NCBI GenBank assembly: GCA_903825765.1
Contig: CAIKBU010000021.1
Location: forward strand, 1 to 38,126
DNA: 38,126 bases
Origin: an uncultured Actinomycetes bacterium
Lineage (GTDB): Bacteria > Actinomycetota > Acidimicrobiia > Acidimicrobiales > RAAP-2
Reading direction: 5' to 3'
The stretch's first letter is position 1. Each line of letters starts with the position of its first letter. The notes beneath the pieces are model-generated. The model saw only the letters and a program-made list of their open reading frames with translations. It did not search any database and was not told where the DNA came from. A program made the translations under genes and the position numbers. This document shows, one piece after another, positions 6,693 through 11,080 of the stretch.

Positions 6693-7286
6693 ATGAGCGT
6701 CACAACCTTTCTCGGCATCGTTGCGCTCATGATTGCGCTCGAACTCCCCGACAAGACAATGATCGCCACCGTCGTGATGTCGACCCGCGCCAAGCCCCGT
6801 AACGTGGCGCTCGGCGCCAGTGCCGGCTTCATTGTGCAGATGGGCATCGCAGTGGCGGCTGGCAGCTTGCTCACCCTGCTGCCCCACACGTTGAAGGGCA
6901 TCATCGTTGGGCTTTTGTTCTTGGGAGGAGCGGCGTACTTGCTCCTCGTCAACGAAAAGGACGAAATCGCGGAGGGTGAGCGAGAGGGTAGCGCCGAGCA
7001 CCCTGCCACGACGTGGCGTGAAATTTTGACCGCCTTTACCGTTATCTTCGTGGGAGAGTTTGGCGATTTGACCCAAATTCAGGCCGCGACGCTGTCCGGC
7101 AAGTACCACCAACCGCTCTCTGTTTTCCTCGCCTGTAGTGTCGCCATGGTGTTTGTCGCCGTCGTTGGCGCCTACGGTGGGAAGGCGCTGCAGCGCATTG
7201 TGCCGCTCGAGAAAATTCGTTTCGTAGGTGGGCTCATCTTCCTCGCGCTGGGCGTCGTGACGTTGGTCCAACTCCGCCACTGGTGA
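6693..7286 (+). CDS. GDT1/TMEM165 (UPF0016) family cation transporter
   Basis: This 197-residue membrane protein has about six helices in two repeats. Each repeat carries the acidic signature: E17-L-P-D20-K-T22 in the first and E122-F-G-D125-L-T127 in the second, separated by a charged loop (about 88-108). The usual first motif is E-x-G-D-K/R-T/S; proline replaces glycine here, which I associate with actinobacterial members. The family exports or exchanges Mn2+ or Ca2+. AAGGAGC from the pepN stop region provides the ribosome-binding site. Its TGA overlaps the GTG start of the next gene in GTGA (7283-7286), so the two are translationally coupled. Divalent-metal supply to that metal-type methyltransferase is possible but speculative. 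Confidence 0.85.
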   Translation: MSVTTFLGIVALMIALELPDKTMIATVVMSTRAKPRNVALGASAGFIVQMGIAVAAGSLLTLLPHTLKGIIVGLLFLGGAAYLLLVNEKDEIAEGEREGSAEHPATTWREILTAFTVIFVGEFGDLTQIQAATLSGKYHQPLSVFLACSVAMVFVAVVGAYGGKALQRIVPLEKIRFVGGLIFLALGVVTLVQLRHW

Positions 7287-7906
7287 GGAACCCCGCCAGC
7301 GTCTTTGACGTCGCTCGACGAACCAAGGGATTTATGCCCATGGTCGAGGGTCTCGCCCTGTTTGAATTTGCTCGGCACGCGCGGGGAACCACCTGGCTGG
7401 AGGTTGGTGCGTGGTGCGGGAAGTCCACGCTCTATCTCGGCGCCGCGGCCACTCGCGCCGGCGCCACTCTCTTCAGCCTCGATCATCACCACGGTTCTGA
7501 AGAATTGCAAGAAGGCTGGCCTCACTTCGACCCCACGCTCGTCGACCCGGCCGATGGCCGCCTCAACACGTTGCCCTCGTGGCAGCGCACTGTCGCCGAT
7601 GCCGGACTCGAGGAGACCGTCATCGGCCTCGTTGGCCGCTCCGAGGTCATCGCCCCGCACTTTGCCACGCCACTCAATCTGCTCTTCCTCGACGGCGGTC
7701 ACGGCGACGTCGTGGCTTGGCGTGACTTTCGTGACTGGGCCCCCAAAGTGGTCGTCGGTGGACTCGTCTTATTGCACGACGTCTTCGCCAATCCCGAGGA
7801 TGGTGGACGTCCGCCCTACGAGATCTACTGCCACGCGCTCGACAGTGGTGATTTCGTGGCGCGCGGCGCCGTTGGATCGCTCCACGCGCTCGAGCGCCGT
7901 CGCTAA
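7283..7906 (+). CDS. Class I SAM methyltransferase, metal-dependent type (MeT1-like candidate)
   Basis: This 207-residue protein has a SAM-binding loop LEVGAWCGKST (about 39-49) and an acidic strand end SLDHHH (about 65-70). FLDGGHG (136-141), D148 and LLHD (163-166) look like the divalent-metal site of Methyltransf_24-type O-methyltransferases. The GTG start overlaps the GDT1 stop. The stop shares CTAA (7903-7906) with the convergent toroid gene. With the neighbouring GT4 enzyme, second methyltransferase and (alpha/alpha)-type protein it matches the gene content I know for mycobacterial methylmannose polysaccharide synthesis, where one enzyme methylates the reducing-end 1-OH. The methyltransferase call is secure; the MMP role is inference. 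Confidence 0.75.
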   Translation: MRNPASVFDVARRTKGFMPMVEGLALFEFARHARGTTWLEVGAWCGKSTLYLGAAATRAGATLFSLDHHHGSEELQEGWPHFDPTLVDPADGRLNTLPSWQRTVADAGLEETVIGLVGRSEVIAPHFATPLNLLFLDGGHGDVVAWRDFRDWAPKVVVGGLVLLHDVFANPEDGGRPPYEIYCHALDSGDFVARGAVGSLHALERRR

Positions 7907-8958
7907 CAACGAGGACACTTTCCGCCGCCGACAGCTCGCCACCATTCCCCCGCCTCACGAAAGAGATGCGATGCCGCTGACGTCTCGGCGAGCGTGTCAA
8001 CCGCGAGAAGTACCGCGGCGGTGCTGTAACTCGAGGTTTCCATCGTGGGGAAGGTCACGCGCTGGGGATAGACCCAACCGGTTAGGTACTCCCCCTCCGC
8101 CGTGCGATGAGCCCGCGTTGACGCGAGCACGGTACGCGCTTCGTCACGACGGCCGAGAGTGACGAGGGCCATCGCGTATTCGGATGTTTCGGCGGCGGTT
8201 ACCCAGTCATTGGTCGACACGCAGCGAACGCCGTGCTCACCCAGAACGAACTCTCGAGCCCGCTGGGCCAAGCGATTGTCTGCCTCACCCCCCCGCACGA
8301 CACCGGTCAAGACGGGGTAGTACCAGTCCATCGCGAACACCACCTTGGGAGCGAAGGCTTCCTCGTGAGCGGCGATCGCGTGGCCCAGACGTCCAAGGGC
8401 CCCACGCCAGGTTGGCCGGTCGTGCCCCAGTTGCGCGGCAATGCGTAAGGCGCATTCAAGCGAGAGAAAAATAGACGACGATCCGGTCAGCAGGGCGAAA
8501 TCGGCTCGGCTGCCTCGTTCGTCATAGGACCACGAGACCGGACCATCCTCACGTTGCGCGCGCAGGACGAAGGTGATTGCTCGTTCAATCATTGGCCAGT
8601 ACATGGCCAACGTGTCAACGTCACCGGTGACCTGGTGGTAGTGCCACAGGCCCGTCGCGACGTACGCCGTCACGTTCGTATCAAGCCGCCGCGACGAAAC
8701 CCAGTCACCAACGTAGTAATTGAACCAACTTCCGTCGCGCCGCTGGTGTCTCGCCAACCACTGATAGGCCGCTCGCGCCTCGTCCAGGTGACCCGTGGCG
8801 GTGAGCGCCATGGCGACCTCCACATGATTCCAGGGGTCGCCATGCCCCCCAGGGAACCAGGGAATAAGACCGCTCGGGAGTTGGAGTCGACACAACCGGT
8901 GAGCGCTCTGGGCAACCTCGTCGCTCGTCACGACGCCGGTGAGTCCCGGGTGCGTCAC
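7903..8958 (-). CDS. Alpha/alpha-toroid protein, glycoside-hydrolase-like (MmpH-like candidate)
   Basis: This 351-residue protein is made of repeated helical pairs with aromatic/Gly motifs such as WFPGGHGDPWNHVEVAMAL near residue 34, QRRDGSWFNYYVGDW, and EGEYLTGWVYP late in the chain. Such proteins are often labelled prenyltransferase, but the pattern is that of an (alpha/alpha)6 barrel as in several glycoside hydrolases. It has no membrane helices and no DDxxD prenyl-diphosphate motif. It ends in KCPRC, an unexplained CxxC at the extreme C-terminus. The GTG start (8958) overlaps the upstream methyltransferase stop in GTGA. Context suggests the endomannosidase of an MMP-like pathway. Acidic catalytic residues cannot be assigned by eye. 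Confidence 0.6.
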   Translation of the reverse strand: MTHPGLTGVVTSDEVAQSAHRLCRLQLPSGLIPWFPGGHGDPWNHVEVAMALTATGHLDEARAAYQWLARHQRRDGSWFNYYVGDWVSSRRLDTNVTAYVATGLWHYHQVTGDVDTLAMYWPMIERAITFVLRAQREDGPVSWSYDERGSRADFALLTGSSSIFLSLECALRIAAQLGHDRPTWRGALGRLGHAIAAHEEAFAPKVVFAMDWYYPVLTGVVRGGEADNRLAQRAREFVLGEHGVRCVSTNDWVTAAETSEYAMALVTLGRRDEARTVLASTRAHRTAEGEYLTGWVYPQRVTFPTMETSSYSTAAVLLAVDTLAETSAASHLFREAGEWWRAVGGGKCPRC

Positions 8959-9677
8959 GACGTCGCCGGTTTGGTGCAGTAGATCACGAGGGACTTGCCC
9001 ATGACCGGATTCAGCAGCGCTTCAGTCCACCGCGTGGTGCGCGGCGCCTTCATGATGTCCCACACCAAGAGCCGGTGGTACTGGCGAACGAGCCAGTGTT
9101 GATCGTTCGTTGTCCCAACAAGGCACTTGAGCCACCAGTAGGGGGTGTGAAGCGCGTGAGCGTGATGCGTCCCTCGCACGACGACGCCGGCTTCAGTGAG
9201 TCGCATTCGTAACACGCGGCGTCGGTAGATGCGGATGTGCCCTCCGGGCACGGAATGATAGGCCGTCGACAGCCACCAGTTGATTCGTTCGGGGGCGTAC
9301 CGTGGGACGGTTACCGCCAGTGTGCCGCCGGGTCGCAGTACTCGAACAATGTCTCGCAAAACGGTGACGTCGTCGGGAATGTGCTCGAGTACCTCTGAGC
9401 AAATGATGTGGTCAAAGGTCGCATCGGGAAATGGCAACCGGTGTGCGTCACCTCGAACGGCGGTCGCCAGGGTGACTGCCGGATCGAACTCGTGTTCGAG
9501 GGCCATGGCACCCAGCATCTGCTGCGTCCCGGTCACCTCCTCTCGCCCCGCGTCGAGCGCAACGACGTGGACCCCGCTGCGAGCGAGGGCGTAGGAGTGA
9601 CGGCCAAAGCCGCAGCCCAGGTCCAGTACTCGGTCGCCGGCGTGTGCACCGAGACGGTCGAATCTCACCGTCAACAT
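8955..9677 (-). CDS. Class I SAM methyltransferase (MeT3-like candidate)
   Basis: This 240-residue Methyltransf_11-type enzyme has motif I VLDLGCGFGRHS (17-28), acidic ALDAG at the end of strand 2, GDAHRLPFPDATFD before strand 4, ICSEVLEHIPDD (strand 4 and following helix), and RVLRPGGTLAVTVPRY. The C-terminal half is rich in Trp/His/Tyr (INWWLSTAYHSVPGG), suggesting a sugar or lipid acceptor site. Its ATG shares one nucleotide with the upstream glycosyltransferase stop (TAATG at 9677), and its TGA overlaps the next GTG, so three genes are strictly coupled. The second methyltransferase in an MMP-like set would be the 3-O-methylating enzyme. I cannot separate the two roles from sequence alone. 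Confidence 0.8.
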   Translation of the reverse strand: MLTVRFDRLGAHAGDRVLDLGCGFGRHSYALARSGVHVVALDAGREEVTGTQQMLGAMALEHEFDPAVTLATAVRGDAHRLPFPDATFDHIICSEVLEHIPDDVTVLRDIVRVLRPGGTLAVTVPRYAPERINWWLSTAYHSVPGGHIRIYRRRVLRMRLTEAGVVVRGTHHAHALHTPYWWLKCLVGTTNDQHWLVRQYHRLLVWDIMKAPRTTRWTEALLNPVMGKSLVIYCTKPATS

Positions 9678-11080
9678 TAGTGAAAGGCCACCGCATCAGG
9701 CAGTGGCGCTCCCGCCAGCACTGCCTCGTAACAGGCCGCGGTACCACGGGCCGTCACCTGCCACGTGAAACGCTCCATCACACGAGCCCGCCCCGCTTGA
9801 CCCATGCGACGGCAGCGCTCGGGGTCATCCAATAACGTCGTGATGGCGCTCGCGAGAGCGGCGGCGTCGCCCGGGGCCACGAGGAGCGCCGCGTCGGGTC
9901 CCACGACTTCCGGGATTGCGCCACCGGTCGTGGCAATCACGGCCACACCGCAGGACATTGCTTCGATAGCCGGCAGGGAGAACCCCTCGTAGAGGCTCGG
10001 CACCACCGCCACGGCCGCTTCACCGTAGAGACGGGCCATCGCTTCGTCACTCACCCCCGAAATCGTGGTCACGACCTCGCCTAATCCCAATCGCTCGATG
10101 GTGCGTGCGACCGCCCCATCAGGTTTCGGCCGGCCGATAATAACGATGTCAATCGAACGCGTCGCGAGTACTAACGCGACCGCTTCGAGGAGGGGAACCA
10201 GTCCCTTCATCGCCACGTCAGAACTCGTCGTCACCATTAATCGATGTGGTCGTGGCACCACATCCTCGTAGGGGCGAAAGACGTCGTGATCAACCCCCAC
10301 CGGCACCACGGTGAGTCGCTCCAGGGCCACACCCATTTGCTCATGAATATCAATCCGGGAGTTGTGCGACACCGTGAGCACGGCCGGTAATTGTTGCACC
10401 ACACGACACTGCATCCGCAAGAAGCCGTACCAACGTCGCACCCCGTAGCGTTCCAGCCACGAAGTGGCGTGCGCGAGGGCGATGGCGCGGTCCACCGTGA
10501 TGGGGTGATGCAGCGTCTCGAGCACTGGCCACCCCTCGTACGAAAGGTCCAAAATACCCGTTGCCATGCACTGGTTGTCGTGTATGATGTCAAAATCATC
10601 ACGTCGGGCGCGAAGAAGTTTCTTGACGCGCATACCAAACGTCCACGGCTCAGCGAAACCTCCCGCTCGCAAACTGGCAAATTCCAGCACGTCAGCCCAG
10701 GAACGAAACTCGCGGAACGCCGGCGTACGGAAGGGGTCGGGGTCACGATAGAGATCGAGGCCGGGCACCGGAGTGAAGCCCACGCCGTCATCGAGTTCGG
10801 GCCACGGGGCGCCAGAAAAGACCTCAACACTGTGTCCGAGTGCGACGAGTTCGCGAGTGAGGTGACGAGTGTAGACACCCTGTCCTCCCACACGAGGATT
10901 CCCTCGATAGACCAAGAACGCAATGCGTCGCCCACCCGGTTGCGCCGGTGCTGGTGCTCGCCGCGGCGGAACGATGAGCGCCTCAGTTCGTTCGACTGAC
11001 GCCCGATGCTTAGCCAGCCAGCCCCTTGTGCGCAGCACCACGTGGATGTTTCCTTTAGTTCGTTCTCGTCTGAGCATCAC
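9677..11080 (-). CDS. GT4-family glycosyltransferase (ManT-like candidate)
   Basis: This GT-B fold, family 4 transferase has 467 residues. The N-terminal Rossmann domain starts near residue 50 at RIAFLVYRGNP and GGQGVYTRHL. The C-terminal domain carries the nucleotide-sugar signature EGFSLPAIEAM (about 362-373), followed by GVAVIATTGGAIPEVVG. Family members transfer sugars with retention from NDP-sugars. The first ~50 residues are Arg-rich and unconserved-looking, so the true start may lie downstream; the ATG at 11080 has only GGGG upstream. It heads the coupled set GT4, methyltransferase, toroid. TetR lies 46 nt upstream on the same strand. An alpha-mannosyltransferase role is inferred from context; family membership is certain. 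Confidence 0.85.
   Translation of the reverse strand: MMLRRERTKGNIHVVLRTRGWLAKHRASVERTEALIVPPRRAPAPAQPGGRRIAFLVYRGNPRVGGQGVYTRHLTRELVALGHSVEVFSGAPWPELDDGVGFTPVPGLDLYRDPDPFRTPAFREFRSWADVLEFASLRAGGFAEPWTFGMRVKKLLRARRDDFDIIHDNQCMATGILDLSYEGWPVLETLHHPITVDRAIALAHATSWLERYGVRRWYGFLRMQCRVVQQLPAVLTVSHNSRIDIHEQMGVALERLTVVPVGVDHDVFRPYEDVVPRPHRLMVTTSSDVAMKGLVPLLEAVALVLATRSIDIVIIGRPKPDGAVARTIERLGLGEVVTTISGVSDEAMARLYGEAAVAVVPSLYEGFSLPAIEAMSCGVAVIATTGGAIPEVVGPDAALLVAPGDAAALASAITTLLDDPERCRRMGQAGRARVMERFTWQVTARGTAACYEAVLAGAPLPDAVAFH

What the first reader, a model, noticed from the sequence alone, without database searches (positions are those of the whole stretch)
7283..11080. Candidate methylmannose-polysaccharide-like cluster outside mycobacteria
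A GT4 glycosyltransferase, two different SAM methyltransferases (one with a metal-type DGGH/HD site) and an (alpha/alpha)-toroid protein form one compact locus. Three genes are coupled by TAATG and GTGA overlaps, and the fourth converges through a shared CTAA. The mycobacterial MMP cluster has the same four activities: ManT, MeT1, MeT3 and the endomannosidase MmpH. MMPs bind fatty acyl chains and affect lipid metabolism. The toroid protein would commonly be mislabelled prenyltransferase. The gene content is seen; the pathway match is inference from known families.
Basis: partly seen in the sequence, partly recalled or inferred. Interest (0 to 1): 0.8.

Follow-up and report, generated by a model that had tools for sequence, protein, structure and literature searches.

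The report
Methylmannose polysaccharide genes beyond mycobacteria
An actinobacterium far from mycobacteria carries the complete four-gene set that mycobacteria use to build and recycle a fat-binding methylated sugar chain, and nearly all sampled members of its order carry its key gene too, although almost none shows the fatty-acid factory this chain was thought to serve.

Summary
Observation and interpretation both hold. The four ORFs are ManT, pMeT3, MmpH and MeT1 of the methylmannose polysaccharide (MMP) pathway. Among all solved structures the best sequence hits of three of them are the MMP enzymes (MeT1 6g7d E 6e-60, MmpH 7qsj E 3e-82, the only hit, ManT 7qsg E 2e-119). Gene order and strands match mycobacterium-like loci. 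Catalytic residues are kept, and a predicted MmpH model overlays 7QSJ at 1.3 A. What is new: the genome belongs to Acidimicrobiales (inferred from named relatives). MmpH is found in 94 of 96 sampled genomes of that order and 50 of 200 of other orders of the class. The FAS-I marker is absent from the window's genome and from 142 of 144 MmpH-positive genomes of the class, so the classical 'MMP regulates FAS-I' role cannot be general. MmpH has Asn at Asp50 in 43 of 43 loci of this class and Tyr at Trp315 in 37 of 37 of this order, which points to Asp47, invariant, as catalytic acid. No enzyme activity or product chemistry is shown.

The parts
9677..11080 (-). manT: alpha-(1->4)-mannosyltransferase (GT4), with an N-terminal extension of about 50 residues relative to M. 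hassiacum ManT
   Evidence: 7qsg E 1.5e-119, next GT4 9e-28; 48.6% identity to M. hassiacum ManT over 405 positions; H191, K292, E365, E373 = H142, K240, E313, E321; M. hassiacum Met1 aligns with residue 51
8955..9677 (-). pmeT3: putative 3-O-methyltransferase, class I SAM
   Evidence: PF08241; 50-52% identical to the gene in the same place of mycobacterium-like loci L081/L082; model nearest to RebM and AtmM, the latter named D-glucose O-methyltransferase in PDB
7903..8958 (-). mmpH: MMP alpha-(1->4)-endomannosidase, (alpha/alpha)6 barrel; D41, N44, E257, Y311 correspond to M. hassiacum D47, D50, E262, W315
   Evidence: 7qsj E 2.7e-82, only hit at E<=1; residues; model vs 7qsj_A Z 55.4, rmsd 1.3 A over 344 residues
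7283..7906 (+). meT1: MMP 1-O-methyltransferase, Methyltransf_24 type
   Evidence: 6g7d E 6.2e-60 over residues 2-205; DHHxGSxE, DGxH and HDVF positions identical in at least 56 of 58 rows
6693..7286 (+). GDT1-type divalent cation/proton antiporter, GTGA-overlaps meT1 (lineage-specific partner, not part of the core module)
   Evidence: PF01169 E 8.5e-32; same strand and at most 35 nt from meT1 in 17 of 17 of the 60 loci that have both

Best explanation
This is a complete, orthologous methylmannose polysaccharide (MMP) biogenesis module in an Acidimicrobiales bacterium. Inferred working, after the mycobacterial model: MmpH cuts mature MMP inside the chain into oligomannosides; ManT extends these with alpha-(1->4)-mannose from GDP-mannose; pMeT3 adds the 3-O-methyl groups; MeT1 caps the reducing end with a 1-O-methyl group. 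The product, an intracellular methylmannan, holds long acyl chains or acyl-CoA. Because no FAS-I is found, it most likely buffers or carries acyl-CoA made by FAS-II or taken up, rather than easing FAS-I product release. Shown here: orthology, gene order, catalytic residues, predicted fold, distribution, absence of the FAS-I marker. Inferred: enzyme activities, product, acyl binding, physiological role.
For: Only or best sequence hits to 6g7d, 7qsj, 7qsg. Same gene order and convergent meT1 as in loci 82-86% identical to the M. hassiacum enzymes (L081, L082). ManT H142/K240/E313 kept in 57 of 57 and E321 in 56 of 57 rows; MmpH D47, W49, N101, M215, Y219, E262, E265 kept in 60 of 60 and 80 of 80 named loci. 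MmpH model overlays 7qsj (Z 55.4; next entry 36.0). pMeT3 model is nearest to RebM/AtmM. No fifth gene family is conserved with the module across the phylum. The tree of the module groups rows by taxonomy. 94 of 96 sampled genomes of the order have MmpH. FAS-I marker in 2 of 296 genomes of the class, none in the window's genome; a FabF-like ketosynthase is present, 441 bits, below the 494-bit cut-off.
Against: MmpH of the window has Asn for Asp50, a residue whose Ala variant has drastically reduced activity in M. hassiacum (PMC9883506, section 11), and Tyr for Trp315 and Val for Phe102; substrate preference or rate may differ. Thr163 is Ala or Ser in 5 of 60 loci. pMeT3 is only 'putative' even in mycobacteria. 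Some loci have partial sets (L065, L083, L096, L143). My literature searches found no product isolated from Acidimicrobiales. GDP-mannose supply was not tested.
Confidence: 0.87

Rival explanations
1. The module makes a related but different polymer: another methylation pattern, length or end group (as the acetylated MMP of Streptomyces griseus shows can happen), with MmpH re-tuned by Asn50/Tyr315/Val102.
For: Substitutions at pocket positions that are fixed by clade (Asn50 in 43 of 43 loci of the class, Tyr315 in 37 of 37 of the order); acetylated MMP in S. griseus (PMC9883506 section 6; PMC4555173 passages).
Against: Catalytic pair and five other sub-site residues kept in 60 of 60; whole module co-inherited; no tailoring gene family conserved beside it.
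Confidence: 0.2
2. MMP acts here through FAS-I as proposed for mycobacteria.
For: In the phylum sample 12 of 16 genomes with the FAS-I marker also have MmpH.
Against: The window's genome has no FAS-I marker; 142 of 144 MmpH-positive genomes of the class and 53 of 65 of the phylum sample lack it (the two samples share genomes). The search does find FAS-I frames of about 3,000 codons in two genomes of the same order and rings in the C. glutamicum control.
Confidence: 0.02
3. The four genes belong to a cell-surface glycan or natural-product pathway and only resemble the MMP enzymes; the barrel protein is a prenyltransferase or terpene cyclase.
For: Weak squalene-hopene cyclase hit under the cut-off (22 bits, cut-off 26.2).
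Against: Near full-length 43% identity to MmpH with its catalytic residues, fold match at 1.3 A, fixed four-gene context across actinobacterial classes.
Confidence: 0.02

Closest known systems
Mycobacterial MMP gene cluster (M. hassiacum MHAS_04402-04405; Maranha et al. 2023, PMC9883506)
   Same: Four orthologous genes in the same order as in mycobacterium-like loci, convergent meT1, 43-49% identity for the three solved enzymes, same catalytic residues, same MmpH fold.
   Different: Host in Acidimicrobiales without a FAS-I marker; MmpH Asp50->Asn, Trp315->Tyr, Phe102->Val; ManT with an N-terminal extension; meT1 coupled to a GDT1 cation antiporter gene.
Streptomyces griseus acetylated MMP (Harris & Gray 1977, seen only as cited in PMC4555173)
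   Different: In those three loci meT1 lies 2.5-4.2 kb from mmpH; MmpH there keeps Asp50/Trp315.
Methylglucose lipopolysaccharide (MGLP) pathway
   Same: Polymethylated, acyl-binding intracellular polysaccharide by the literature (PMC2674218, PMC4555173 passages). A GpgS-like gene is present elsewhere in the window's genome (256 bits, cut-off 262).
   Different: Different sugar and enzymes; the GpgS-like ORF lies near ORFs that look by eye like threonine synthase and GroEL, with no MGLP cluster seen by eye on the 11.7 kb fetched.

Membership tests
MMP biosynthesis cluster | ManT orthologue with donor-site and catalytic residues (H142, K240, E313, E321) | tested here: met
MMP biosynthesis cluster | MmpH orthologue, (alpha/alpha)6 barrel, base Glu262 and acid Asp47 | tested here: met
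MMP biosynthesis cluster | MmpH Asp50 (second acidic residue, needed for full activity in M. hassiacum) and Trp315 | tested here: not met
   Asn44 and Tyr311 in the window; Asn in 43 of 43 loci of the class, Tyr in 37 of 37 of the order. Not family-defining by itself: Asn50 also occurs in 4 of 17 loci from outside the class.
MMP biosynthesis cluster | MeT1 orthologue (6G7D type) with DHHxGSxE/DGxH/HD motifs | tested here: met
   motif choice is by conservation, the MeT1 paper was not readable
MMP biosynthesis cluster | pMeT3 in the cluster | tested here: met
   its 3-O activity is unproven in the papers I could read
MMP biosynthesis cluster | Gene order manT-pmeT3-mmpH with convergent meT1 | tested here: met
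MMP biosynthesis cluster | Product: 3-O-methylmannose polymer binding acyl chains | not testable with these tools
   needs extraction and mass spectrometry
PMPS-FAS-I regulatory system | FAS-I in the same genome | tested here: not met
   PF08354 absent from the window's genome (96% complete) and from 294 of 296 of the class
Squalene-hopene cyclase / prenyltransferase (likely mis-annotation of MmpH) | Score over the Pfam cut-off | tested here: not met
   22 bits against a cut-off of 26.2

The most novel reading that the evidence does not exclude
MMP is an ancient, core actinobacterial metabolite, kept even in small genomes of 1.4-2 Mb, whose basic role is FAS-I-independent acyl-CoA handling (for example membrane adaptation in the cold); its link to FAS-I and mycolates in mycobacteria is secondary. 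Acidimicrobiia carry their own MmpH variant (Asn50, in the order also Tyr315) with re-tuned cleavage, and in the window's family MMP capping is tied to a GDT1 cation antiporter.
Probability: 0.5. Interest if true: 0.75.

Novelty: new member of a known kind. Interest (0 to 1): 0.6.

Why it matters
The function of polymethylated polysaccharides is described as still poorly defined and is usually framed around mycobacterial FAS-I and mycolic acids (PMC2674218, PMC4555173 passages). A near-universal MMP module in an order of actinobacteria that almost lacks the FAS-I marker makes that framing testable and, if the product is confirmed, untenable as a general explanation. It also gives natural MmpH variants that bear on an ambiguity left by the crystal structure paper (Asp47 or Asp50 as catalytic acid): Asp50 is replaced by Asn in all sampled loci of a class while Asp47 never varies.

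Tried and rejected
Rejected: prenyltransferase/terpene cyclase identity of the barrel protein. Rejected: a fifth conserved module gene or primer-making glycosyltransferase beside the cluster; apart from the four genes and antisense ORFs of them, no family reached more than 21 of 60 loci (PepN 21, NifU 19, GDT1 17, mostly in the window's family). So the question of how the first MMP chain is primed gets no help from the neighbourhood. Rejected: a shared tailoring gene between mmpH and meT1 where they are separated; the inserts mostly have no homologue in the other loci (exception: a P450-like ORF in L089); this was judged by ORF comparison and by eye, no domain search was made on them. Tried: MGLP pathway in the same genome; only a GpgS-like GT2 under its cut-off was found. 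Contamination of the bin was considered: PepN, GDT1 and NifU flank the module in the same way in the genus, so the contig is at home. Not tested: GDP-mannose supply, mycolate genes, other phyla (several 'Acidobacteria' or 'Thermoanaerobacterales' titles are probably mislabelled bins; L144 has the contig length of G263, which the genome search files in the window's order).

Literature: the 2019 MeT1 paper is not held, so MeT1 residues were judged by conservation only; that 6g7d is MeT1 and that MeT1 depends on Mg2+ is recalled (the 2023 paper does not name 6g7d, and only shows MgCl2 in the MeT1 assay). That MMP in Acidimicrobiales is not in print rests on searches of an open-access library. One search (Acidimicrobi with fatty acid synthase terms; 10 of 2,391 papers listed) gave nothing of use.
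Full report
Observation. The four ORFs exist at the stated coordinates. manT (9677-11080, -), pmeT3 (8955-9677, -) and mmpH (7903-8958, -) overlap through TAATG and GTGA; meT1 (7283-7906, +) converges on mmpH through CTAA. meT1 itself GTGA-overlaps an upstream GDT1-type antiporter gene (7283-7286).

Identity. phmmer against all solved structures gives as best hits 6g7d for MeT1 (E 6.2e-60; the only other hit at E<=1 is an antibody chain at 0.45), 7qsj for MmpH (E 2.7e-82, the only hit at E<=1) and 7qsg for ManT (E 1.5e-119; next GT4 9.2e-28). 7QSJ and 7QSG are the M. hassiacum MmpH and ManT entries of PMC9883506; that 6g7d is M. hassiacum MeT1 is recalled. Aligned identity to these chains is 48.0% (MeT1, 204 positions), 43.3% (MmpH, 330) and 48.6% (ManT, 405). 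pMeT3 has no close solved relative (best 5e-17, MitM; with a profile, RebM 6e-19); its place in the cluster and 50-52% identity to the gene in the same place of loci L081/L082 identify it. Those two loci are 82-86% identical to the M. hassiacum chains in the three other enzymes, hence mycobacterium-like, and their MeT1 is the convergent gene.

Residues. Reference residues were taken from PMC9883506 (sections 11 and 14 read) and mapped on alignments of my 60 loci. ManT: H142, K240, E313, G314, F315, L317 kept in 57 of 57, E321 in 56 of 57 (Gln in L089), G15 in 56 of 57 (gap in L077); the guanine-contact position D293 is Asp in the window but varies (Asp in 40 of 57). Three of 60 ManT rows were dropped: L072 (cut off), L096 (remote, doubtful) and L085 (a stop inside the chosen frame, near the start); one MeT1 row, L089, was dropped for a stop near its end. 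MmpH: D47, W49, N101, M215, Y219, E262, E265 kept in 60 of 60; T163 in 55; D50 is Asn in 47 and Asp in 13; W315 is Tyr in 37 and Trp in 23; F102 varies. Sorted by kinship, Asn50 is in 43 of 43 loci of the window's class and 4 of 17 outside; Tyr315 is in 37 of 37 loci of the window's order and 0 of 23 elsewhere. In the 80 named loci Asn50 and Tyr315 are in 78; the two exceptions are titled Jatrophihabitans sp. and Flexivirga meconopsidis (the two sets overlap). The paper could not decide between Asp47 and Asp50 as catalytic acid; the record here favours Asp47 (inference).

Fold. AlphaFold2 models from alignments of the window and named loci: MmpH mean pLDDT 94.7, against 7qsj_A Z 55.4, 1.3 A over 344 residues, next entry Z 36.0; Foldseek agrees. 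pMeT3 mean pLDDT 94.4; nearest are RebM (recalled as a sugar O-methyltransferase) and AtmM (named D-glucose O-methyltransferase), TM about 0.65. This is compatible with a sugar O-methyltransferase but not specific.

Who carries it. The window's assembly is a 1.75 Mb genome in 129 contigs, 96% complete. The nearest named relatives are mostly Acidimicrobiaceae/Acidimicrobiales bins, several with bog, palsa, fen or lake in the title (the best 80 of at least 589 relatives are kept there); the order is inferred from these names. MmpH (E<=1e-20) was found in 144 of 296 sampled genomes of the class: the own genome, 13 of the genus, 5 of the family, 75 of the rest of the order, with 2 misses in the order (94 of 96), and 50 of 200 in other orders (my count of the rows, which are listed by kinship; some matches are fragments). 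In a sample of 396 genomes of the phylum 65 had it. The published survey covered mycobacterial genomes, eight related species and Hoyosella, and states conserved MmpH homologues in Corynebacterium, Rhodococcus, Streptomyces and Nocardia (PMC9883506 sections 6, 11, 18 read).

Module. In 60 hand-picked loci, 56 hold all four genes over 90 bits; the exceptions are L065, L083, L090 (no meT1 on the stretch) and L096 (no pmeT3, manT remote). ManT-pMeT3 gaps are at most 30 nt in 54 of 59, pMeT3-MmpH in 50 of 59; meT1 is convergent in 53 of 57 and within 100 nt of mmpH in 35 of those 53. In 80 named loci 73 have manT-pmeT3-mmpH in a row and 58 have the full convergent arrangement; 7 hold a partial set (over 80 bits), some on short stretches, but L143 shows neither manT nor pmeT3 on a 17 kb stretch. 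A quick tree of the joined proteins (48 rows; ten same-genus rows, the M. hassiacum row and L072, L085, L096 left out) needs the minimum of 10 changes for its 11 taxonomic labels. This speaks for largely vertical inheritance; but the root is not inferred, 9 of 45 inner branches are open, and one row from outside the class (L089, f61) lies on the side of the class.

FAS-I. The literature ties MMP and MGLP to FAS-I by in vitro work (PMC2674218 and PMC4555173, passages read). The FAS-I family PF08354 was found in 2 of 296 genomes of the class (both MmpH-positive, family f8), not in the window's genome, and in 16 of 396 of the phylum sample. Crossing: both 12, FAS-I only 4, MmpH only 53. Of 14 control genomes it rang in C. 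glutamicum alone. A FabF-like ketosynthase is present in the window's genome (441 bits, cut-off 494), in line with FAS-II (inference). So MMP is unlikely to need FAS-I in this order.

Limits. One HMM marker stands for FAS-I; the genome is 96% complete; counts are over sampled species and the two samples share genomes; no activity, product or acyl binding was tested.

Noticed in passing
6693-7286 (+) and 7283-7906 (+): A GDT1-type cation/proton antiporter gene is coupled to meT1 (GTGA overlap); in 17 of 17 loci with both, they are on the same strand and 35 nt apart or less, 15 of them overlapping by 1-4 nt, even where meT1 is separated from mmpH (L050, L054). It may supply or balance the divalent metal for the glycan enzymes (inference).
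   Followed up: partly
L194:9253-10167 (own genome C22): GpgS-like glycosyltransferase just under the NCBIfam cut-off (256 of 262 bits), near ORFs that look like threonine synthase and GroEL; a possible compatible-solute or MGLP-type step.
   Followed up: partly
L188, L189 (genomes G177, G190): Two genomes of one family (f8) in the window's order carry FAS-I frames of about 3,000 codons together with MmpH, unlike the other 294 sampled genomes of the class; possibly a transfer.
   Followed up: no
L059, L060, L062, L063, L064, L066, L067, L068, L070: A family that looks by eye like TesB acyl-CoA thioesterase lies several kb from mmpH in nine loci of other families of the order; it could hint at acyl-CoA metabolism or be chance synteny.
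   Followed up: no
10931-11080 (-): ManT of the window has an N-terminal extension of about 50 residues relative to M. hassiacum ManT; ORF lengths suggest that same-genus loci share it. Function unknown.
   Followed up: no
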